A stretch of 46,783 nucleotides of DNA from NCBI GenBank assembly GCA_043822065.1, contig JBDRCC010000019.1:1-46783 (forward strand), given 5' to 3'. The position numbers and the translations under genes were made by a program. Positions 3,662 through 38,326 of the stretch are shown in pieces. The DNA is from JBDRCC01 sp043822065 [NCBI: archaeon] (lineage in GTDB: Archaea; Undinarchaeota; CAZHTU01). Below the pieces are notes generated by a model, which ran no database searches, was not told where the DNA came from, and saw nothing but the letters and a program-made list of their open reading frames with translations. Position 1 is the stretch's first letter, and every line of letters begins with the position of its first letter.

Positions 3662-4936
3662 ATGGCGCAAAGGGGTATTCGAGAGTATGACGGCAAGAGG
3701 CTTATGGCAAAGTTTGTCCCGGACTATTGGAAGGGCTTCAACTACCCGGGAAAGATAGTCTTCGTCGACCCGAAGACTGACATGAAAAAGCTGGCTGAAC
3801 AGAACAAGTGGCTCCAAAAAGACAAGCTCGTGGTAAAGCCTGACCAGCTGTTTGGAAAGCGGGGGAAGCACAAACTTCTTCTACTGAATGCGAACTATCC
3901 CGAGGCGCAGAAATGGATTAAAGAAAGGATGAACAAAAAGTTCACTGTCGGAAAGACCACTGGAATACTCACGGACTTCATGATAGAGCCGTTCGTCCCG
4001 CACGACGGGAACGAGGAGTACTACGTCGCGATAAAGACTGAGCGGGAGGGGGACACGGTTTACTTCTCCACCAAGGGCGGGATATTCGTAGAGGAAAACT
4101 GGGACAAGGTCTCTTCGGCAAGCATACCAATCGGTGGAAGCCTCGACCCGAAGACGCTTGAAAGCCTGGTATCCAAGGCTCCGCCGAAGCGGAGGGAAGA
4201 GATAAAGAGCTTCATAGGCGCGCTTTACAAGTTCTTTGCCGACCTGAACTTCACCTACCTGGAGATAAATCCGTTCACCTTTTCAGGAAAGGAGCTGATG
4301 CCCCTTGACCTGGTCGCAAGGGTGGACGACACGGCCGAATTCGAGAGCGGCTCGAAGTGGGGGAAGCTAGCCTTCCCGGCTCCATTCGGAAGGGTTCTCT
4401 CTGAAGAGGAGGCATACGTAAAGAGCCTTGACGAGAAGACTGGCGCAAGCCTGAAGCTTACTATCCTGAACAGGGATGGGAGGATATGGACCATGGTCGC
4501 CGGCGGAGGCGCAAGCGTGATATTCGCAGATACCGTCGCAGACCTCGGGTTCGCAGGCGAGCTCGCAAACTACGGCGAGTACTCAGGCGACCCGGACGAG
4601 GAGTTCACCTACCTTTATGCGAAGACCATACTCGACCTGATGACGATGAAGAAAGACCCGCGCGGTAAGGTGCTGATAATCGGCGGTGGAATTGCGAACT
4701 TCACCGACGTCGCGGCCACCTTCAAGGGGATAAACAGGGCCCTGCGGGAGCATGCGAAAAAGCTCAGGGAGAACAAGGTCAAGATATACGTCCGCAGGGG
4801 CGGACCAAACTACCAGGAGGGCCTGAAGCAGATTAAGGACGTCGCAGAGGAGTGCGGGCTCAACATGGAAGTCTACGGGCCGGAGATGCACATGACGCGT
4901 GTGGTTTCAATGGCGCTCAAAGGGGGTAAAAAATGA
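3662..4936 (+). CDS. aclB: ATP-citrate lyase, small (ATP-grasp/citrate-binding) subunit
   Basis: At 424 residues this matches the small subunit of two-gene ATP-citrate lyases (AclB in Chlorobium, ACLA in plants). It has the N-terminal ATP-grasp fold related to succinyl-CoA synthetase beta (KLVVKPDQLFGKRGK, then LEINPF near residue 200). The C-terminal citrate-binding domain contains GGGASVIFADT and GGGIANFTDVAATFKG. With the large subunit it makes acetyl-CoA and oxaloacetate from citrate, CoA and ATP in the cytosol. Its stop overlaps the next start in an ATGA junction (4933-4936), typical of 1:1 subunit expression. The enzyme is the hallmark of the reductive TCA cycle but also supplies acetyl-CoA for biosynthesis. 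Subunit letters differ between organisms. Confidence 0.93.
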   Translation: MAQRGIREYDGKRLMAKFVPDYWKGFNYPGKIVFVDPKTDMKKLAEQNKWLQKDKLVVKPDQLFGKRGKHKLLLLNANYPEAQKWIKERMNKKFTVGKTTGILTDFMIEPFVPHDGNEEYYVAIKTEREGDTVYFSTKGGIFVEENWDKVSSASIPIGGSLDPKTLESLVSKAPPKRREEIKSFIGALYKFFADLNFTYLEINPFTFSGKELMPLDLVARVDDTAEFESGSKWGKLAFPAPFGRVLSEEEAYVKSLDEKTGASLKLTILNRDGRIWTMVAGGGASVIFADTVADLGFAGELANYGEYSGDPDEEFTYLYAKTILDLMTMKKDPRGKVLIIGGGIANFTDVAATFKGINRALREHAKKLRENKVKIYVRRGGPNYQEGLKQIKDVAEECGLNMEVYGPEMHMTRVVSMALKGGKK

Positions 4937-6783
4937 GGGAATACGAGCTTTTCAGCAGGGACACCCAGGCGGTAATTTACAACAACCAGAGGAACGCGGT
5001 ACAGCGGATGCTCGACTTTGACGCACTGTGCGAGAGGAAGACCCCAAGCGTTGCGTGCATAGTGAACGAGACGCGCGGAGGGTTTGAGAAATTCTTCTTC
5101 GGCAGGAACGAGCTGCTCATACCGATGTACAGGACGCTGGAGGAAGCGCTGGAAAGGCACCCGAACGTAGACGTGATGATAAACTTCGCCTCGTTCAGGT
5201 CGGCCTACGCCACAAGCAAGAAGGCGCTCGAGTCGAAGAAAATCAGGACGGTCGCGATAATCGCCGAAGGCGTGCCGGAGAGGCGGGCAAGGGAGCTTGC
5301 GGCCCTGGCGCGGAAGAATGGCAAGGTCATAATAGGGCCTTCGACAGTCGGCGGGCTTACAGCAGGCGCATTCAAGATAGGCAACACAGCAGGGACGATT
5401 GAGAATATCTTCGCCTCCAGGCTTTACAGGCCGGGGTGCGTCGGCTTCGTCTCGAAGTCTGGCGGCATGCTGAACGAGGCGTTCAACATCATATCGCGGA
5501 ACTCGAACGGCGTTTACGAGGGGATAGCCATCGGCGGGGACAAGTACCCTGGCTCGACCCTTATGGACCACGTCGTGAGGTATGAGAAGAACCCGAACAT
5601 AAAGATGATAGTGGTCCTAGGGGAGCTCGGCGGCAAGGAGGAGTACAGGATTGTCGACGCCATGAAGGCTGGCAAGGTAAAGAAGCCCCTCGTCGCGTGG
5701 GTGACCGGGACTTGCGCAAAGGTCTTCCCGTCGGAAGTCCAGTTCGGGCACGCCGGGGCAAAGGCGGGCGCCCAGGAGGAGACTGCCGATGCAAAGAACG
5801 CAGCCCTCAAGGCGGCTGGCGCGATAGTGCCGAAGTCGTTCGACGACTTTGACGATGCAATAAGCAAGACGTACCAGTCCCTCAAGAAAAAGGGCATTGC
5901 CAAAGACATCCCTGACAAAGAGGGGCTCACTTTCCCGCTTGAGTTCAACAAGGCAGTGAAGGCAGGGGTTGTCAGAAAGCCCACGAGCTTCATCTGCACA
6001 ATTTCCGACGAGCGCGGGGACGAGCACGAGTATCTAGGCAAGCCGATAACCGAAATAATCGCGGAGAACCGCTCAATCGGGGACATCGTCGCGATGCTCT
6101 GGTTCGGGAGGGAGCTGCCGAAGTGGGCGACCAACTACATCGAGCTCATAGTGAAAATCGTCGCTGACCACGGGCCCGCGGTTTCGGGGGCGCACAATGC
6201 GATAGTCGCATCGAGAGCCGGCAAGGACGTAATATCCTGCCTCTGCTCAGGGCTGCTGACGATAGGCCCGCGGTTCGGAGGCGCAATCGACGGCGCTGCC
6301 AAGTACATGAAGGACGCCTGCGACGCCGGAATGACCCCGGAGCAGTTTGTCAGGGACATGAAGGACAAGGGGATACTCATCCCGGGGATAGGGCACAGGA
6401 TAAAGAGCCTTGAGAACCCTGACAAAAGGGTTGAACTCCTGAAGAACTACGTCAAGAAGAACTTCCCGAAGACGAAGTACCTCGACTATGCGATTGAGGT
6501 TGAGCAGGTTACGACCAAGAAGCGCAACACGCTGATACTGAACGTAGACGGCTGCGTCGGGGTGACGTTCGTCGATCTGATGAACAGCGTCGGCTTCAGC
6601 CAGGACGAGATAAGCAGGTTCATCGACATGGGCGTGCTTAACGCGCTGTTCGTCTGGGGAAGGAGCATCGGCTTCATCGGGCACATCCTCGACCAGAAGA
6701 GGCTGGACGCGGACCTTTACAGGCACCCGTGGGACGACATCCTCTTCATAAAGCCGGAAAAGAAATCCAAGGGCAAGAACTAA
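4933..6783 (+). CDS. aclA: ATP-citrate lyase, large (CoA-binding plus citrate synthase-like) subunit
   Basis: 616 residues, the usual size of the large subunit. The N-terminal half is the CoA-binding/CoA-ligase part. The phospho-accepting histidine is H273 in FGHAGAKAG. The C-terminal ~260 residues are the citrate synthase-like lyase domain, with H421 (SGAHNA), H488 (GIGHRIKS) and D539 (NVDGCVG) at the expected catalytic positions. No key residue is missing. It is translationally coupled to aclB. Its TAA overlaps the TAG of the convergent DUF6485 gene, so the two operons meet tail to tail with no spacer. Confidence 0.94.
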   Translation: MREYELFSRDTQAVIYNNQRNAVQRMLDFDALCERKTPSVACIVNETRGGFEKFFFGRNELLIPMYRTLEEALERHPNVDVMINFASFRSAYATSKKALESKKIRTVAIIAEGVPERRARELAALARKNGKVIIGPSTVGGLTAGAFKIGNTAGTIENIFASRLYRPGCVGFVSKSGGMLNEAFNIISRNSNGVYEGIAIGGDKYPGSTLMDHVVRYEKNPNIKMIVVLGELGGKEEYRIVDAMKAGKVKKPLVAWVTGTCAKVFPSEVQFGHAGAKAGAQEETADAKNAALKAAGAIVPKSFDDFDDAISKTYQSLKKKGIAKDIPDKEGLTFPLEFNKAVKAGVVRKPTSFICTISDERGDEHEYLGKPITEIIAENRSIGDIVAMLWFGRELPKWATNYIELIVKIVADHGPAVSGAHNAIVASRAGKDVISCLCSGLLTIGPRFGGAIDGAAKYMKDACDAGMTPEQFVRDMKDKGILIPGIGHRIKSLENPDKRVELLKNYVKKNFPKTKYLDYAIEVEQVTTKKRNTLILNVDGCVGVTFVDLMNSVGFSQDEISRFIDMGVLNALFVWGRSIGFIGHILDQKRLDADLYRHPWDDILFIKPEKKSKGKN

Positions 6784-31589: not shown

Positions 31590-31638
31590 GATATCACCTT
31601 TTTAATGAAGAAGGGGGATTAATATATAAGTCTTTTTG

Positions 31639-32874
31639 ATGATGAACGGGGATGAAATTAGGGACTATTACAGCAGGGAAGTATGCGCGGCTATTTTTGA
31701 GTGTTCCAGGGATAGGGAGATAGGCTCGGTGCGGGAGGACGGCAAGTACGCATCCAGGCCTGCGGCGGTAAACTACCCGGAGGACATCCAGTCGATAGTC
31801 AGGAAGGGCGCGGTCTCATTCCACGGCTCGATAGAGAGGTGGAAGCAGCCGATGATGCTTTCCACGGGCCTGCCGAAAAGGGAGCTGGACGAGATGCGGC
31901 TTGGCTGGGACTTCGTCATAGACATAGACTGCGATTCCGGGCTGAAATTTGCGTCCCCTGCGGCGGAGGCGTTCATTGACGCGCTCGAGAAGCACGGGAT
32001 AAGGGACTGGTCGGTAAAATTCTCTGGGAACAGGGGGTTCCACATCGGCGTCCCGTTCGAAGTTTTCCCAAAGCACATAGATTTTGAGCCGACTGCGAAG
32101 AAGTATCCCGCCCTGCCGGCTAAGGTGGCAGAGTACCTGAAGGAGTACTGCAGGGAGGACATAAAGAAGAACATAAGGAAGCTTGTCGGGGATGGCCCGT
32201 TTGACCCGTACCAGTATATAGACATTGACATTGGGGTTTTCGCTTCAAGGCACCTGTTCAGGCTGCCGTACTGCCTCCACCAGAAAACCTGGCTTGCGAG
32301 CATCCCGATAAGCAGGGGAGAACTGAAGGATTTCGACAGGGAGAGCGCAAAGCCTGAGAACGTCGAGGTAAAGCTCAGGTTCCTTGAGAGGAGATCATCT
32401 TCCGACGCGTCGCGGCTTATACGGAAGGCGACGTACTGGGCTCCTGAGAAGGAGGCTTCGGAGGAGAGGGAGTTTGAGCCGATAGGCGAAAAGATTGACA
32501 GCGCCAATTTCCCCCCGTGCATCAAAAACATACTCAATGGAATAGAAGACGGGAAGAAGAGGAGCGTGTTCGTCCTGACCTGCTTCCTTCTGAACCTCGG
32601 CTGGAGCGCAGAAGACGTGAAAAAGGTGCTCCTCGAGTGGAACAAAAAGAACCAGGACCCGCTGAACGAGAACGTCCTGCTGTACACCCTCCGCGACCAA
32701 AAGAGGCGCGGCAAGCCGCTGATGTGCCCGAACTGCGACGCGGAAAATTATTATAAGGCATACGGCGTTTGCACTCCTGACAAGCTCTGCGGAAACATAA
32801 AGAACCCGGCAGGGTATGCGCTTGCGAGGCGGAAGGAAAAGAGGCAGGGCAAGAAGAAGGGGAAAAGCAAATGA
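31639..32874 (+). CDS. priS: Single-chain DNA primase: PriS fused to the PriL Fe-S domain
   Basis: 411 residues from ATG 31639. Residues 1 to ~280 are the PriS catalytic domain: D95 and D97 in FVIDIDCD, numbers identical to Pyrococcus PriS, and SGNRGFHIGV for primer/NTP binding. Residues ~290-400 are not PriS. They read FPPCIKNILNGI, FVLTCFLLNLGWSAEDV, LMCPNCD, GVCTPDKLCGNIKNP, which is the Fe-S C-terminal domain of PriL, with likely ligands C294, C363 or C366, C378 and C384. The protein thus resembles the monomeric primase of Nanoarchaeum and other DPANN archaea. It makes RNA/DNA primers at replication forks. GINS follows with an ATGA overlap. The start could also be the ATG at 31642. Confidence 0.9.
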   Translation: MMNGDEIRDYYSREVCAAIFECSRDREIGSVREDGKYASRPAAVNYPEDIQSIVRKGAVSFHGSIERWKQPMMLSTGLPKRELDEMRLGWDFVIDIDCDSGLKFASPAAEAFIDALEKHGIRDWSVKFSGNRGFHIGVPFEVFPKHIDFEPTAKKYPALPAKVAEYLKEYCREDIKKNIRKLVGDGPFDPYQYIDIDIGVFASRHLFRLPYCLHQKTWLASIPISRGELKDFDRESAKPENVEVKLRFLERRSSSDASRLIRKATYWAPEKEASEEREFEPIGEKIDSANFPPCIKNILNGIEDGKKRSVFVLTCFLLNLGWSAEDVKKVLLEWNKKNQDPLNENVLLYTLRDQKRRGKPLMCPNCDAENYYKAYGVCTPDKLCGNIKNPAGYALARRKEKRQGKKKGKSK

Positions 32875-33637: not shown

Positions 33638-33808
33638 GTGGCAAAAGGCAGATTTATAAAAGTTGAATGCCCGGGCTGCGGCGGAAAGCAAGTCGTATTC
33701 GACAAGCCAGCCAGCACCGTAAAGTGCCAGTCGTGCGAAGAGGTCCTTGTCAAGCCGATGGGCGGCAAGGGAAAAATAATAGGAAAAGTTCTCCAAGAAT
33801 TAGGTTAA
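33638..33808 (+). CDS. rps27e: Ribosomal protein S27e
   Basis: A 56-residue protein starting with GTG at 33638, one base after the L44e stop. It encodes FIKVECPGCGGKQVVFD and VKCQSCEE, the two zinc-binding CxxC pairs of S27e, and ends in VLQELG. It is a small-subunit zinc-ribbon protein. Its TAA overlaps the aIF2-alpha ATG by one base (TAATG). Confidence 0.95.
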   Translation: MAKGRFIKVECPGCGGKQVVFDKPASTVKCQSCEEVLVKPMGGKGKIIGKVLQELG

Positions 33809-34560
33809 TGGCTAAGAAGATACCTGAAGTAGATGAGTTGGTTGTAGGCACCGTCACGAGAATTTTCCCTCACGGGGCTTTCGTGAAGATAGAAGGGTAC
33901 GACGTCGAGGGAATGGTCCACATCTCTGAGATTTCTCCCAAGTGGATAAAAAACATCACGGACTTCGTGCAGGAAGGCAAAAAAGTTGTTGCGAAGGTCC
34001 TGAAAATTGACCATGAGAAGGGGCACATAGACCTCTCAATGAAGAGGATAAGCGACAGCCTGAAGCGCGACAGGATGAAGCAGTGGAAGAATGAAGGCCG
34101 CGCCACTAAGCTGATGGAGCTTTGCGCAAAGAGCCTCAAGGGCGAGAAGTCCCTGGAGGAAATAAGCGACAAGCTTGCCGAGGCATTCGGGAGCAGGTTC
34201 GGCGCATTCGAGGACGCCGCTGCAAACGGCACTGTGAATATAGTAAAGGCAGGGGTGCCAAAAGAATGGGCCGCAGAGATAGAGAAAATGGCCAAGACGA
34301 ACATAAAGGTCAAGCGGGTGACTGTCGCGGGATATGTTGAGCTGCGCTCGAGCGCACCAAACGGCGTTGTGCTGATAAAAAAGGCGCTTGGCACTGGCTC
34401 AGACATACAGTATGCAGGCTCGCCGTATTACAGGATTAAGGTCGAGGACGCGAATTACAAGAACGCAGAGAAGCGGCTGAAGGCGGTTGCTGACGGAATA
34501 ATAGAGAAGATGTCCAAGTCCGGCGGGGAAGGCACGTTCCACCGCGAGCTGAAGCATTGA
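33808..34560 (+). CDS. eif2a: Translation initiation factor aIF2, alpha subunit
   Basis: 250 residues from the ATG at 33808. The N-terminal S1/OB domain holds VVGTVTRIFPHGAFVKI and EGMVHISEISPKWIKNI, followed by KVLKIDHEKGHIDLSMKR. A helical domain and the C-terminal alpha-beta domain come next (YYRIKVEDANYKNAEKRLK). As part of the aIF2 heterotrimer it helps carry initiator Met-tRNA to the ribosome. An in-frame extension upstream to 33667 reads the S27e gene in another frame and is not used. Confidence 0.96.
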   Translation: MAKKIPEVDELVVGTVTRIFPHGAFVKIEGYDVEGMVHISEISPKWIKNITDFVQEGKKVVAKVLKIDHEKGHIDLSMKRISDSLKRDRMKQWKNEGRATKLMELCAKSLKGEKSLEEISDKLAEAFGSRFGAFEDAAANGTVNIVKAGVPKEWAAEIEKMAKTNIKVKRVTVAGYVELRSSAPNGVVLIKKALGTGSDIQYAGSPYYRIKVEDANYKNAEKRLKAVADGIIEKMSKSGGEGTFHRELKH

Positions 34561-34609
34561 GCCGAAGCCATAATTACATAAACATTGGCGGCTTTCTGAA
34601 AATCCTGAG

Positions 34610-34792
34610 ATGAGCCATAATATACATAAATGCCCTACGTGTTATAGGTACACGTTAAAGGAGAAGTGCCCGGTTTGTGCTGCTGAGACGATAATCCCGG
34701 CTCCTGCAAGGTTTTCTCCGGATGACAAGTACGTCAAATACCGGCTCGAATGGAGGTTGAAAAATGGAGATACTGATAAAGATAACGGCTAA
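34610..34792 (+). CDS. nop10: Nop10, H/ACA RNP protein
   Basis: 60 residues: KCPTCYRYTLKEKCPVC (two CxxC pairs, one zinc) then PARFSPDDKYVKYRLEW, the standard Nop10 layout. It works with Cbf5, Gar1 and L7Ae in guide-RNA-directed pseudouridylation of rRNA. Its last 29 bases overlap the PAC2 gene in another frame. A TATA-like CATAATTACATAAAC lies ~30 bases upstream, so a secondary promoter is possible. Confidence 0.95.
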   Translation: MSHNIHKCPTCYRYTLKEKCPVCAAETIIPAPARFSPDDKYVKYRLEWRLKNGDTDKDNG

Positions 34793-35540
34793 GCCGAAAT
34801 TCAAGAAGAGCCCGATACTGATTGAGGGCCTCCCTGGATTTGGGCAGGTGGGAAGGGTCGCAGTCGAGCACCTCATAAGCGAGCTGAAAGCCAAGAAGTT
34901 TGCAGAGCTTATCTCCCCAAGCTTTCCGCCGGAGGTTTTTGTTGACAACACCGGCATGGTACGGAGGGTGAACAACGAGTTTTATTACTACTCCGGGAAG
35001 AAGAATGACCTTATACTCCTAATAGGCGAGACGCAGGCGTCCGACGTGCGCGGGCAGTACGAGCTGGTTGAGGCTATTGTGAAGCTATCGAAGAGGTACA
35101 AGGTCAAGGAGATGATAACCTTGGGCGGATACGCTACCGGCGCCTTGAAGGAAAAGCCCCAGGTGTACGGCGCTTCAACCTCAAAGAAGTTCATTGAGAA
35201 ATACGAGAAGCACGGCATAGTGTTCAAGAGCAAGACCGAGCGCGGCGGGATTGTGGGCGCGAGCGGCCTGCTCCTTGGGATAGGCCAGCTTTATGGGATT
35301 GAGGGCGTGTGCCTTATGGGTGAGACGCCAGGGCATCCGCTTTTTGTAGACGCAAAGTCGGCGGAAGCAGTCCTGAAGAAGCTGATGAAGATACTTGACA
35401 TGAAGCTAGACCTGAAAAAGCTTGACAAGCGTGTCAAGGAGATAGAAAAGTTCAGGACCACCATACAGCAGCTGATGCAGAAGGCTATGGAAAAGCCTGA
35501 AGAGAAGCCTGATTTGGAAAAGGTCAGATATATAGGGTAG
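34764..35540 (+). CDS. PAC2-family protein (proteasome assembly chaperone-like)
   Basis: 258 residues. PILIEGLPGFGQVGRVAVEHLI at the start, TLGGYATGAL and GIVGASGLLLGI in the middle, and MGETPGHPLFVDAKSA mark the archaeal PAC2/PbaB family. A C-terminal ~55 residues form a basic/acidic coiled coil (LDLKKLDKRVKEIEKF). Related proteins chaperone proteasome assembly or act as scaffold partners; the precise role in archaea is incompletely known. It is the usual neighbour of nop10. Confidence 0.92.
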   Translation: MEILIKITAKPKFKKSPILIEGLPGFGQVGRVAVEHLISELKAKKFAELISPSFPPEVFVDNTGMVRRVNNEFYYYSGKKNDLILLIGETQASDVRGQYELVEAIVKLSKRYKVKEMITLGGYATGALKEKPQVYGASTSKKFIEKYEKHGIVFKSKTERGGIVGASGLLLGIGQLYGIEGVCLMGETPGHPLFVDAKSAEAVLKKLMKILDMKLDLKKLDKRVKEIEKFRTTIQQLMQKAMEKPEEKPDLEKVRYIG

Positions 35541-35542
35541 TT

Positions 35543-38326
35543 ATGGGAAAGCGCCCCACTTTTGACGCAGACCTCCACCTCCACGGAAAGTACTCACGAG
35601 GGGTGTCGCACAGGATGGAAATCCCAGTAATTGCAGAACAGGCGATTTACAAGGGGCTTGACATTGTCGGCACGGCGGACTGCCTCCACGCAGGCTGGCT
35701 CCAGCACCTTGAGGCGAACCTTAAGGAGGTCGCGCCAGGGACGTACAAACATGGGGGCTTTGAGACAAGGTTCATCCTGCAGACTGAGGTTGAGGGGCTG
35801 CACAGAATACACCACCTTGTTTTCCTCCCAGACTTTGAAGCGGTCAGGCAGCTCAGGAAGGAATTCAGCAGGCATGGGAACTTGGACACTGACGGCAGGC
35901 CGAAGCTGAGGCTTACCGGTGAGGAGATAGCCGGAATGGTGCTTGAAGCCGGCGGGATGGTGGGGCCGGGGCATGCATTCACCCCGTACACCGCAGTCTA
36001 TTCAGCATTCAACTCGTTAAGCGATTGCTATGGAAAGCACATAGGCGACATTCATTTTCTTGAGCTCGGGCTTTCAGCAGACAGCGAGATTGCCTCCGGG
36101 ATAAGGGAGCTGGACAGGATAACTTTCCTTTCAAATAGTGACGGTCATTGTTTACATCCGGATACATCAATATTACTAAGTAATGGAATGCCAGTAGAAA
36201 TAAAAAATCTTGACGACCCCGAAGTATGTTCAATGGCATTTGATACTGATTTAAAACTTAAAAAAGCCACTCCGATTAAAATGATAAGACGTCCGGCTCC
36301 GCCATTTTTGTATAGTATAAAATCAAAATCACGGGCCATAAAAACTACGGAAGACCATAGATTTTTTGTTTTAGATGATGATAGAATAGTAGAAAAATTT
36401 GCTCATGAGTTGAAGAAAGGTGATTTAATAGCATGTCTACGTAATTTTCCTTTCGAAAATAAGCCTTTTATTCTACCGAAATTCGCTCTCAAACGATACT
36501 ACAGGATAAAGCCAGCTGGTTTGGTATATCTTTCTAAAAAACGGAAAAAAATCGCACTTACCCAAAAAGATGTCGCAACTCGCCTTAAAATCCATGAACT
36601 GCAGTACCATTTTATAGAGAAGGGACGAATAAAATGTGAAAAAAATATATTGAAAAAACTGTGTAGATGTTACAAGATTAGATTTAGAGATTTCAAAAAG
36701 AGATTCATAAGCAACGGATATCCTACATTCAAAAACACAAGATATGCCACTCAAAAGTTGTCCCAAATAGTTGGTTATGCCTTGGGAGATGGTAGTCGGG
36801 AGATAGGTAAAAAAGTAAGAGGATTTTCGATAGCAGATAAAGATAAAAAATTGTTGGAACTTTATCAGAAAAAAATTTACGACGTTTTCAATGTAAGGGG
36901 GTGCTTGGAGAAACGCAGCAAACAGAAATCCTACCGTTTGAGACTCCCATCATGCCTTTTAGACTATATAACGCTCATGGCGCCCGAAATTTTTGTATAT
37001 TCGCCGGATCGTAAGATTCCAGAATTTGTTTTTGATTTGCCTAGAAACCAAGTAGGTTCCTTTCTCAAGGGTTTTTTTGATGCTGAAGGGAGCGCAGAGC
37101 ACCATGGTATTTCTGTCTGTTCCTCCAGTCTTATACTATTAAAACAGATGCAAGCGCTATTGCTTAGGTTTGGTATAGTCTCCTATGTGTATCCATATAT
37201 TTTAGAGAAAAAGAAGAAGAGGTATAGACATAGGTTATACATTTATGGTAAGGATTCATTAGATATTTTTAAGAAGAGGATAGGCTTTGATTCTGAGAAA
37301 AAAATGCAGAAGTTACTTGAATATACTTCCTCAGTGAAACAAACATCAAAAGACGCATTTGTGGATTATCTCCCGTTAAAGAATACCATCCGGGAGTTGA
37401 TGGATTTGCTCGATATGCGAATCAGTCACTTCCCGAAGAGGTTGCAGTATCACATATACAAAGGCAGAACTTTGAGGCGCCGACATTTAAGGGATTTAAT
37501 AGAAATATTCCAAAAACACTCAAAAGATGAGAATGCAAATTCACTAATAAACAAATTAAAAAAATTTGTAGAGAGTGATATAATCTGGGAGATGGTAAAG
37601 GAGGTAAAGAAAATTGACTCGGATTGTGAGTATGTATATGATTTGACAATACCCACTTATGAGAATTATATTGCAGAAGGTATAATTGTACATAATTCGC
37701 CCTGGCCGGACAAATTGGGGCGCGAGTTCAACAGGCTGGAGATAAAGGAGCCAATTTACGCCGAAGTAATCAAGGCGCTGAAAAATGAGGGCGGCAGGAG
37801 GGTTGCGCTTAACGTAGGCGTGCCGTGCATTTACGGGAAGTACCACCTGACGCGATGCACGAAGTGTTTGGCGTTCTACTACTTGGAAGACGCAATCCGG
37901 TTCGGCTGGCGTTGCCAGAAGTGCAAGGGCATAATCAAGAAGGGGGTAAAGGACAGGATAGCTGAGATGGCCGGCGGAGGGGACAGGTCAAGGCACCCGC
38001 CGTATCTGTCGATAACCCCGCTTTCGGAAATAATCGCACTTTCGAAGGGCGTGTCAGGGACGCACACTGAAAAAGTCCAGGGCATCTGGCGCAAGTTCAT
38101 TGAGCTTGGAACTGAGATTGAGGTTCTTATTGACCTGCCTGTCGAAAGCCTGCGCAAGGTTGACGCGGACGTCGCAGGAATAATAGGCAGGTTCAGGCAG
38201 AAACAGCTGCATTACATCCCTGGCGGCGGAGGGGAATACGGCAAGCTCGTCCTTGAGAAGCCTAAGAAGCTTGATTTCTACGACTCGAAGCAGAAGACAT
38301 TGGGAAGCTGGGCTAAGACCCCTTGA
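35543..38326 (+). CDS. Endonuclease Q (PHP family) interrupted by an intein
   Basis: 927 residues as encoded. Exteins 1-202 and 719-927 together make ~411 residues, the size of EndoQ. The N-extein is a PHP domain (FDADLHLHGKYSRG, IVGTADCLHAGW, QTEVEG, GPGHAFTPYTAVYS, ELGLSADS) and ends at the metal-binding motif LSNSDGH. The C-extein resumes SPWPDKLGREFNRLE and has a zinc finger (C772, C775, C791, C794). EndoQ cuts DNA 5' of deaminated bases and abasic sites in archaea. The intein (residues 203-718) splits the active-site motif, so the precursor should be inactive until splicing. It starts two bases after the PAC2 stop. Confidence 0.92.
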   Translation: MGKRPTFDADLHLHGKYSRGVSHRMEIPVIAEQAIYKGLDIVGTADCLHAGWLQHLEANLKEVAPGTYKHGGFETRFILQTEVEGLHRIHHLVFLPDFEAVRQLRKEFSRHGNLDTDGRPKLRLTGEEIAGMVLEAGGMVGPGHAFTPYTAVYSAFNSLSDCYGKHIGDIHFLELGLSADSEIASGIRELDRITFLSNSDGHCLHPDTSILLSNGMPVEIKNLDDPEVCSMAFDTDLKLKKATPIKMIRRPAPPFLYSIKSKSRAIKTTEDHRFFVLDDDRIVEKFAHELKKGDLIACLRNFPFENKPFILPKFALKRYYRIKPAGLVYLSKKRKKIALTQKDVATRLKIHELQYHFIEKGRIKCEKNILKKLCRCYKIRFRDFKKRFISNGYPTFKNTRYATQKLSQIVGYALGDGSREIGKKVRGFSIADKDKKLLELYQKKIYDVFNVRGCLEKRSKQKSYRLRLPSCLLDYITLMAPEIFVYSPDRKIPEFVFDLPRNQVGSFLKGFFDAEGSAEHHGISVCSSSLILLKQMQALLLRFGIVSYVYPYILEKKKKRYRHRLYIYGKDSLDIFKKRIGFDSEKKMQKLLEYTSSVKQTSKDAFVDYLPLKNTIRELMDLLDMRISHFPKRLQYHIYKGRTLRRRHLRDLIEIFQKHSKDENANSLINKLKKFVESDIIWEMVKEVKKIDSDCEYVYDLTIPTYENYIAEGIIVHNSPWPDKLGREFNRLEIKEPIYAEVIKALKNEGGRRVALNVGVPCIYGKYHLTRCTKCLAFYYLEDAIRFGWRCQKCKGIIKKGVKDRIAEMAGGGDRSRHPPYLSITPLSEIIALSKGVSGTHTEKVQGIWRKFIELGTEIEVLIDLPVESLRKVDADVAGIIGRFRQKQLHYIPGGGGEYGKLVLEKPKKLDFYDSKQKTLGSWAKTP
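36149..37696 (+). mobile_element. LAGLIDADG intein with HTH insert in EndoQ
   Basis: 516 residues, in frame. Block A starts at Cys1 (CLHPDTSILLSNG) and block B is TTEDHRFFV. The homing endonuclease has two LAGLIDADG-type motifs, VGYALGDGS (~410-418 of the precursor) and LKGFFDAEGS (~508-517). Blocks F/G are VYDLTIPTYENYIAEG and IIVHN, with Ser as the +1 residue. All splicing residues (Cys1, His in block B, penultimate His, last Asn, Ser+1) are present. Between splicing block B and the first endonuclease motif lies an XRE-like helix-turn-helix (~327-380: ALTQKDVATRLKI and so on). Base composition is strikingly AT-rich with TTA, AGA and ATA/ATT codons, unlike both exteins, showing recent invasion. 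Confidence 0.92.

What the first reader, a model, noticed from the sequence alone, without database searches (positions are those of the whole stretch)
36149..37696. Intein inside endonuclease Q, inserted at the PHP metal-binding motif
An intact 516-residue LAGLIDADG intein sits in an archaeal EndoQ directly after LSNSDGH and before Ser. All splicing residues are visible. I do not recall EndoQ among known intein hosts. Insertion in the active-site motif is typical of inteins and means repair activity requires splicing.
Basis: partly seen in the sequence, partly recalled or inferred. Interest (0 to 1): 0.8.

Follow-up and report, generated by a model that had tools for sequence, protein, structure and literature searches.

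The report
Mobile intein in archaeal endonuclease Q
A DNA-repair enzyme gene of an uncultured archaeon is interrupted, at its most invariant metal-binding motif, by a self-splicing mobile protein element (an intein) whose relatives sit at exactly the same spot in two other archaeal phyla, so this is an ordinary kind of element in a host protein for which I found no earlier report.

Summary
Window 36149-37696 encodes a 516-residue intein in frame inside a 927-residue endonuclease Q (EndoQ) precursor, between the invariant His and Ser of SD(A/G)H|S (PHP motif IV). Splicing blocks and both LAGLIDADG acidic residues are intact; a helix-turn-helix segment lies between the Hint and nuclease parts. 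Two more EndoQ inteins sit at the same junction, in a Diapherotrites and a Thermoplasmatota genome. The three inteins form one clade (100/99), while their EndoQ hosts do not (AU p about 7e-31) and two of the hosts have close intein-free sisters. The window intein is 34.9% G+C in a 55% G+C gene, with a possible donor-like patch just upstream. This fits cross-phylum homing. A fourth EndoQ (Thermococcus-like) carries a different intein at a second site, directly after another PHP histidine. The nearest non-EndoQ relatives found are GlmS inteins of the Methanocaldococcus phylum (35-36%). I found no EndoQ intein in print in the held library. By sequence it is a normal class 1 homing intein in a newly recognised host. 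Splicing and homing are inferred, not shown.

The parts
35543..38326 (+). EndoQ precursor gene (927 aa, one open frame)
   Evidence: TIGR00375 8.9e-86, below its curated cut-off because split; PfuEndoQ 5zb8 1.1e-101
35543..36148 (+). N-extein (202 aa): PHP domain through motif IV SDGH
36119..36148 (+). last 10 N-extein codons, G+C-poor third positions (2 of 10): possible co-conversion tract from an AT-rich donor
   Evidence: suggestive only
36149..37696 (+). intein, 516 aa
36149..36445 (+). Hint N-terminal part: Cys1 and block B TEDH (block B at 36347-36358)
36533..36691 (+). XRE/HTH_3-type helix-turn-helix between Hint and nuclease
   Evidence: Pfam HTH_3 0.002, below cut-off, here; 4.2e-6 and 7.3e-7, above cut-off, in the two sister inteins; profile matches repressor structures
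36773..36793 (+). LAGLIDADG motif 1, GYALGDG
37070..37090 (+). LAGLIDADG motif 2, GFFDAEG
37550..37696 (+). Hint C-terminal part ending ENYIAEGIIVHN
37697..38326 (+). C-extein (209 aa) beginning with the native Ser+1; contains the rest of EndoQ
37856..37924 (+). CxxC...CxxC zinc finger of EndoQ
   Evidence: four C-terminal cysteines are described for EndoQ in PMC4357722 (passages)

Best explanation
A class 1 homing intein. After translation the Hint domain excises the 516 residues (N-S acyl shift at Cys1, transfer to Ser+1, Asn cyclisation) and joins ...SDGH to SPWP..., which restores the EndoQ PHP active site. The XRE-like HTH plus two-motif LAGLIDADG nuclease cuts intein-free EndoQ genes at the codons for the invariant SDxHS motif, so the element is copied in by repair. 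One lineage of it has entered EndoQ in at least three archaeal phyla. Shown: anatomy, intact motifs, same site in three host lineages, intein clade against a non-clade of hosts, base-composition misfit. Inferred: splicing, DNA cleavage, direction and recency of transfer.
For: Exact in-frame insert with canonical C1, TxxH, penultimate H, terminal N and Ser+1, and both LAGLIDADG acids, in the window and two sister inteins. Insertion between H and S, each the same in 112 of 113 aligned EndoQ rows, the last row having X. Same junction occupied in G001 Diapherotrites and G477 Thermoplasmatota. The three inteins form one clade, 100/99. Their exteins held as one clade are rejected, p-AU 6.75e-31, three state changes; G001 and G477 each sit with intein-free sisters. 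Intein G+C 34.9% vs 55.0% in flanks, the largest deficit of 38 inteins; 422 overlapping 1548-bp windows elsewhere in the contig average 54.0%, minimum 50.3%. The last 10 N-extein codons are the lowest-GC3 10-codon window of 403 in the extein; 17 of 5775 such windows in 14 other window genes are as low, and 0 of 37 GC3-matched intein-free EndoQs are that low there.
Against: No splicing or cleavage data. The intein-to-extein divergence ratio does not separate horizontal from vertical descent: path lengths 1.38-1.81 vs 1.85-2.07, within the wide range of an aRF1 control (253 pairs, 5th-95th percentile 0.40-1.88). Inteins usually run below their flanks in G+C (37 of 38 rows at or below), so part of the deficit is generic. 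The co-conversion patch is 10 codons, upstream only; 10 was the most extreme of nine lengths tried (binomial 0.0027; the others 0.015-0.076) and the downstream side shows none. Intein identity among the three is only 38-41%, so these are not recent copies of each other. The window's own HTH_3 match is below cut-off. The window's phylum is only moderately supported (93/88).
Confidence: 0.93

Rival explanations
1. An old EndoQ intein inherited vertically from a deep archaeal ancestor and lost in nearly all lineages; the patchy pattern is loss, not homing.
For: Intein and extein divergences are similar (identity 38-41% vs 42-43%); the rate control cannot exclude it.
Against: It needs loss in nearly every EndoQ lineage sampled: no intein was seen in 15 Aenigmarchaeota-phylum genomes with a listed EndoQ (one of them, G239, not spanning the site), 23 Altiarchaeota and 21 Hadarchaeota (two seen in part). 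The window intein's 20-point G+C misfit and the intein-free sisters of G001 and G477 favour later entry.
Confidence: 0.08
2. A decayed or non-splicing intein: the precursor is made but EndoQ is inactive, a gene on its way out.
For: EndoQ is patchily distributed (PMC4357722, passages) and so may be dispensable; the Gly before the last His (G201) is unique among 113 rows.
Against: Single open frame through 927 codons, all splicing residues and both nuclease acids intact, extein still EndoQ-like end to end.
Confidence: 0.03
3. Conditional splicing: the intein keeps EndoQ off until a signal (temperature, redox, zinc, DNA damage) releases it.
For: Insertion directly after a metal-motif residue; a second, different intein in a Thermococcus-like EndoQ sits after another PHP histidine.
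Against: Both positions are also what homing to the most conserved codons would give (inteins prefer conserved sites, PMC2814812, passages); nothing here tests regulation.
Confidence: 0.08

Closest known systems
GlmS (glucosamine-fructose-6-phosphate aminotransferase) inteins of the Methanocaldococcus phylum (recalled name: Mja GF-6P intein)
   Same: 35-36% identity over nearly the full length, class 1 ends, inserted at a GH|S junction; GlmS identity and the HTH-like segment read by eye
   Different: other host protein and other target sequence; falls in its own clade
aRF1 GGQ-site inteins of Diapherotrites and Aenigmarchaeota
   Same: full-length similarity, 24-30% identity, found in the same host phyla, with an HTH-like segment
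   Different: inserted after GGQ (or GGW) of the release factor; separate group
PI-PfuI (1dq3), PI-PkoII (2cw7) and other solved archaeal inteins
   Same: Hint core and LAGLIDADG nuclease by sequence and profile match; the name PI-PfuI for 1dq3 is recalled
   Different: different hosts; only remote sequence similarity
Endonuclease Q of Pyrococcus furiosus (5zb8, 7k30)
   Same: both extein halves, PHP motifs and zinc finger
   Different: no intein; Ala in place of the window's Gly in SDxH
EndoQ intein of G407 (L180), phylum of a Thermococcus locus
   Same: an intein in EndoQ placed directly after a PHP histidine (H139 in Pfu numbering)
   Different: other site, 398 aa, Cys+1, only 21% over 152 residues to the window intein

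Membership tests
Class 1 intein | Hint splicing domain with blocks A, B, F, G | tested here: met
   Pfam PF14890 3.5e-28, TIGR01443 and TIGR01445 over cut-off; block residues read directly
Class 1 intein | nucleophile at position 1, TxxH, penultimate His, terminal Asn, C/S/T at +1 | tested here: met
   C1, TEDH, HN, Ser+1
Class 1 intein | in-frame insert absent from homologous hosts | tested here: met
   of 80 EndoQ loci, 79 cover the site and 78 of these are uninterrupted; the other is L071
Class 1 intein | self-excision and ligation | not testable with these tools
   needs expression
LAGLIDADG homing endonuclease | two LAGLIDADG motifs with catalytic acids | tested here: met
   GDG and DAEG motifs in all three EndoQ inteins; PF14528 3.3e-19
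LAGLIDADG homing endonuclease | cleavage of the intein-free allele and homing | not testable with these tools
   only indirect: phylogenetic mismatch and base composition
XRE-type HTH inside intein | HTH_3 over Pfam cut-off | tested here: inconclusive
   window 18.6 bits, cut-off 23; sister inteins 27.2 and 29.6 bits
Endonuclease Q | PHP motifs incl. SDAH and C-terminal four-Cys zinc finger | tested here: met
   features as given in PMC4357722 (passages)
Endonuclease Q | TIGR00375 over its curated cut-off | tested here: inconclusive
   intein-split precursor scores 288.6 of 326.6 bits in two stretches; the joined extein was not scored
Endonuclease Q | nicking 5' of deaminated bases | not testable with these tools
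   needs assay

The most novel reading that the evidence does not exclude
The PHP metal-ligand histidines of EndoQ are a recurrent intein hot spot because they offer a regulatory benefit: the repair nuclease is kept unassembled until the intein splices under a condition such as metal availability or heat. Two only remotely related inteins, each placed immediately after a different PHP histidine, would be convergent use of the same off-switch.
Probability: 0.08. Interest if true: 0.65.

Novelty: new member of a known kind. Interest (0 to 1): 0.4.

Why it matters
It adds EndoQ, a repair nuclease, to the intein hosts, with two insertion sites, both directly after PHP histidines. It gives a clean case of one intein lineage at one codon junction in three archaeal host lineages including DPANN, so intein traffic between small, probably host-dependent archaea and Thermoplasmatota becomes testable with a single PCR-sized target. 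A spliced-versus-precursor assay would also tell whether such an insertion controls deaminated-base repair.

Tried and rejected
Single-protein scan of genome contigs with the C-extein found no relative; the alignment-based scan did. Scans of viral contigs gave no relative of the intein or of EndoQ; phage records (12) and plasmid records (1) gave only remote partial matches, so no vector was identified. AlphaFold on the lone intein failed (mean pLDDT 36) and was not used. The comparison of intein and extein divergence with aRF1 as control was inconclusive. My first third-position control over other window genes read one of 14 genes out of frame (21 of 5730); repeated in frame it is 17 of 5775. 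Chance similarity, wrong frame and a chimeric gene were rejected: one open frame, exact junctions, same junction in two other genomes. A split gene in G001 was not assumed: its two contigs both end inside the intein and share only 12 bases, read as an assembly break, with about 70 residues of the window intein not represented.

Full report
Observation. One open frame, 35543-38326 on the + strand, encodes 927 residues. Residues 203-718 are an intein, exactly 36149-37696, 516 aa. Pfam gives Intein_splicing 3.5e-28 and LAGLIDADG_3 3.3e-19. NCBIfam gives the intein N- and C-terminal regions over their cut-offs, and TIGR00375 for the host at 8.9e-86, though the intein-split protein scores below that family's cut-off (288.6 of 326.6 bits). 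The host halves match P. furiosus EndoQ (5zb8) residues 3-199 and 195-382. In that numbering the insert lies after H195 of SDAH and before S196. PDB chain 7k30 has Asn at 193, read from the alignment; that this is a mutant of the catalytic Asp is recalled. PMC4357722 (passages) calls SDAH the most conserved motif of EndoQ, numbering it one lower. That H139 and H195 bind metal follows from the PHP fold and is recalled, not computed.

The site. In an alignment of 113 rows (112 distinct EndoQ sequences plus the window; 5 partial loci, L143, L115, L081, L053 and L071, were left out) S199 and D200 are the same in the 112 rows with a residue there, and H202 and S203 in 112 of 113, the last row having X. 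Only the window has Gly between D and H. The +1 Ser is therefore native. The ten residues round the junction rank 22nd of 412 positions for conservation.

The element. Cys1, TEDH, His515-Asn516 and Ser+1 are canonical, and both LAGLIDADG motifs keep their acids; the corresponding residues are present in the two sister inteins found below. Between the Hint N-part and the nuclease lies an XRE-type helix-turn-helix: below Pfam's cut-off in the window (18.6 of 23 bits), above it in both sisters (27.2 and 29.6 bits). A profile of the EndoQ inteins also matches repressor-type structures in the PDB at that place (E 3.6e-5 to 0.0075), 1dq3 in the nuclease, and many Hint domains.

Relatives at the same site. 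A scan of genome contigs with an EndoQ profile kept 80 loci (of 97 confirmed); 79 cover the site and one of them, L071 (Candidatus Diapherotrites), carries an intein C-terminus there. Another contig of the same genome, G001, holds the N-extein plus 401 intein residues at the identical junction. Of 87 genomes of that phylum, 54 have a listed EndoQ match (some, such as G034, do not span the site) and only G001 shows the intein. None was seen in 156 genomes of the Aenigmarchaeota-titled locus's phylum (15 with a listed EndoQ; the frame of one, G239, ends before the site), 29 of the Altiarchaeota phylum (23 with EndoQ) or 28 Hadarchaeota (21 with EndoQ, two seen in part). Of 389 genomes of the Thermoplasmatota locus's phylum, 5 matched at 1e-58 and one, G477, has a 945-residue open frame aligned over residues 8-908 of the window precursor at 42%, with a 519-aa intein at SDAH|S. 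Its order holds 3 genomes, 1 with a match at 1e-60. At these cut-offs many intein-free EndoQs are not counted, and the tool scored only a few candidates per genome in the large searches, so absence is provisional. A search of 392 genomes of the phylum of G280 found nothing at 1e-60 and has no positive control.

A second site. In the Thermococcus locus's phylum (115 genomes, 98 with a match; match list truncated) one EndoQ, G407, has an 819-aa frame with a different 398-aa intein after H139 of the PHP domain (GPAH|C...HN|C). A second search of the same 115 genomes with this precursor listed 85 genomes at 1e-135, one with the intein. It is only remotely like the window intein (21% over 152 aa). 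So EndoQ has at least two intein sites, each directly after a PHP histidine.

Descent. In a tree of 43 inteins (partial hits such as L119, L139, L174 and L175 left out) the three same-site EndoQ inteins are one clade, 100/99; GlmS inteins (including four from the Methanocaldococcus locus's phylum, 35-36% identical to the window's) and RadA inteins form their own clades, and the aRF1 inteins group at 85/77 (hosts read by eye from sequence). In a tree of 62 chosen EndoQ exteins G001 is sister to an intein-free Diapherotrites (100/95) and G477 to intein-free Thermoplasmatota-phylum rows (100/99). The window joins the Aenigmarchaeota group with moderate support (93/88) on a long branch, as in a wider quick tree of 111 rows (SH-aLRT 90), so its phylum is probable, not settled. 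Holding the three carriers together is rejected, p-AU 6.75e-31; three changes are needed. This is the pattern that PMC2814812 (passages) describes for inteins: same-site inteins share ancestry, with a phylogeny of their own.

Recency in the window lineage. The intein is 34.9% G+C against 55.0% in 600-base flanks, the largest deficit among 38 inteins measured (the rest run from 0.2 points above to 15.6 below). 422 overlapping windows of the same length elsewhere in the contig have mean 54.0%, minimum 50.3%. G001 contigs are about 30% and the G477 stretch 38% G+C. The last ten N-extein codons have 2 of 10 G/C third positions, the lowest of 403 ten-codon windows in the extein (binomial 0.0027, the most extreme of nine lengths tried; the others 0.015-0.076). 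In 14 other genes of the window 17 of 5775 such windows are as low, and 0 of 37 GC3-matched intein-free EndoQs (of 120) at the same place. I read this as a possible co-conversion tract; the downstream side shows nothing. Against a simple story: intein identity between carriers is only 38-41%, and an aRF1 rate control could not separate transfer from descent.

Literature. Terms 'endonuclease Q' + 'intein' give 2 papers, 'EndoQ' + 'intein' 1; in PMC7776575 the two words occur in unrelated passages, PMC10380557 was seen only in the listing. 'Intein' with 'PHP' or 'PHP domain' gave 212 papers at two of three terms, 20 listed, none of those on EndoQ by title. 'Intein' + 'Diapherotrites' gave one paper, on ARMAN archaea (listing); 'GF-6P' + 'intein' gave none, so that intein's name is recalled. 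A table of intein hosts in PMC5874633 (section read) does not list EndoQ; it is headed as a selection. InBase and subscription papers were not searchable, so 'not in print' means not found by these searches of this library.

Verdict. New member of a known kind.

Noticed in passing
L158, L159, L160, L164 (Aenigmarchaeota-phylum genomes G233, G199, G213, G201): aRF1-like release factors whose intein follows GGW instead of GGQ; L158 is TIGR03676 aRF1 over cut-off. The catalytic Gln appears replaced at the intein junction.
   Followed up: partly
L120-L129, L161-L169 and others: Frequent aRF1 inteins at the GGQ motif in Diapherotrites and Aenigmarchaeota genomes, plus inteins in RadA-, MCM-, Rad50-, VirB11/PilT-, HerA-, DHH/RecJ- and GlmS-like hosts (host names read by eye).
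   Followed up: partly
window 3662-6783: Adjacent ATP-citrate lyase-type genes (ATP-grasp/citrate-binding and CoA-ligase/citrate-synthase parts) in a DPANN-like archaeal contig.
   Followed up: no
window 31636-32874: One 412-aa protein matching both small- and large-subunit DNA primase domains, a fused primase.
   Followed up: no
L052, L053: Contigs titled Chloroflexi; the EndoQ of L052 nests inside Diapherotrites, so the bin is probably mislabelled. L053 was too short for the tree.
   Followed up: partly
window 33667-35540: aIF2-alpha, a short ORF (Nop10, name recalled), PAC2 and EndoQ in a row, the same order as in several Hadesarchaea and Thermococcus loci; in Diapherotrites loci PAC2 and aIF2-alpha lie on the other side of EndoQ.
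   Followed up: partly
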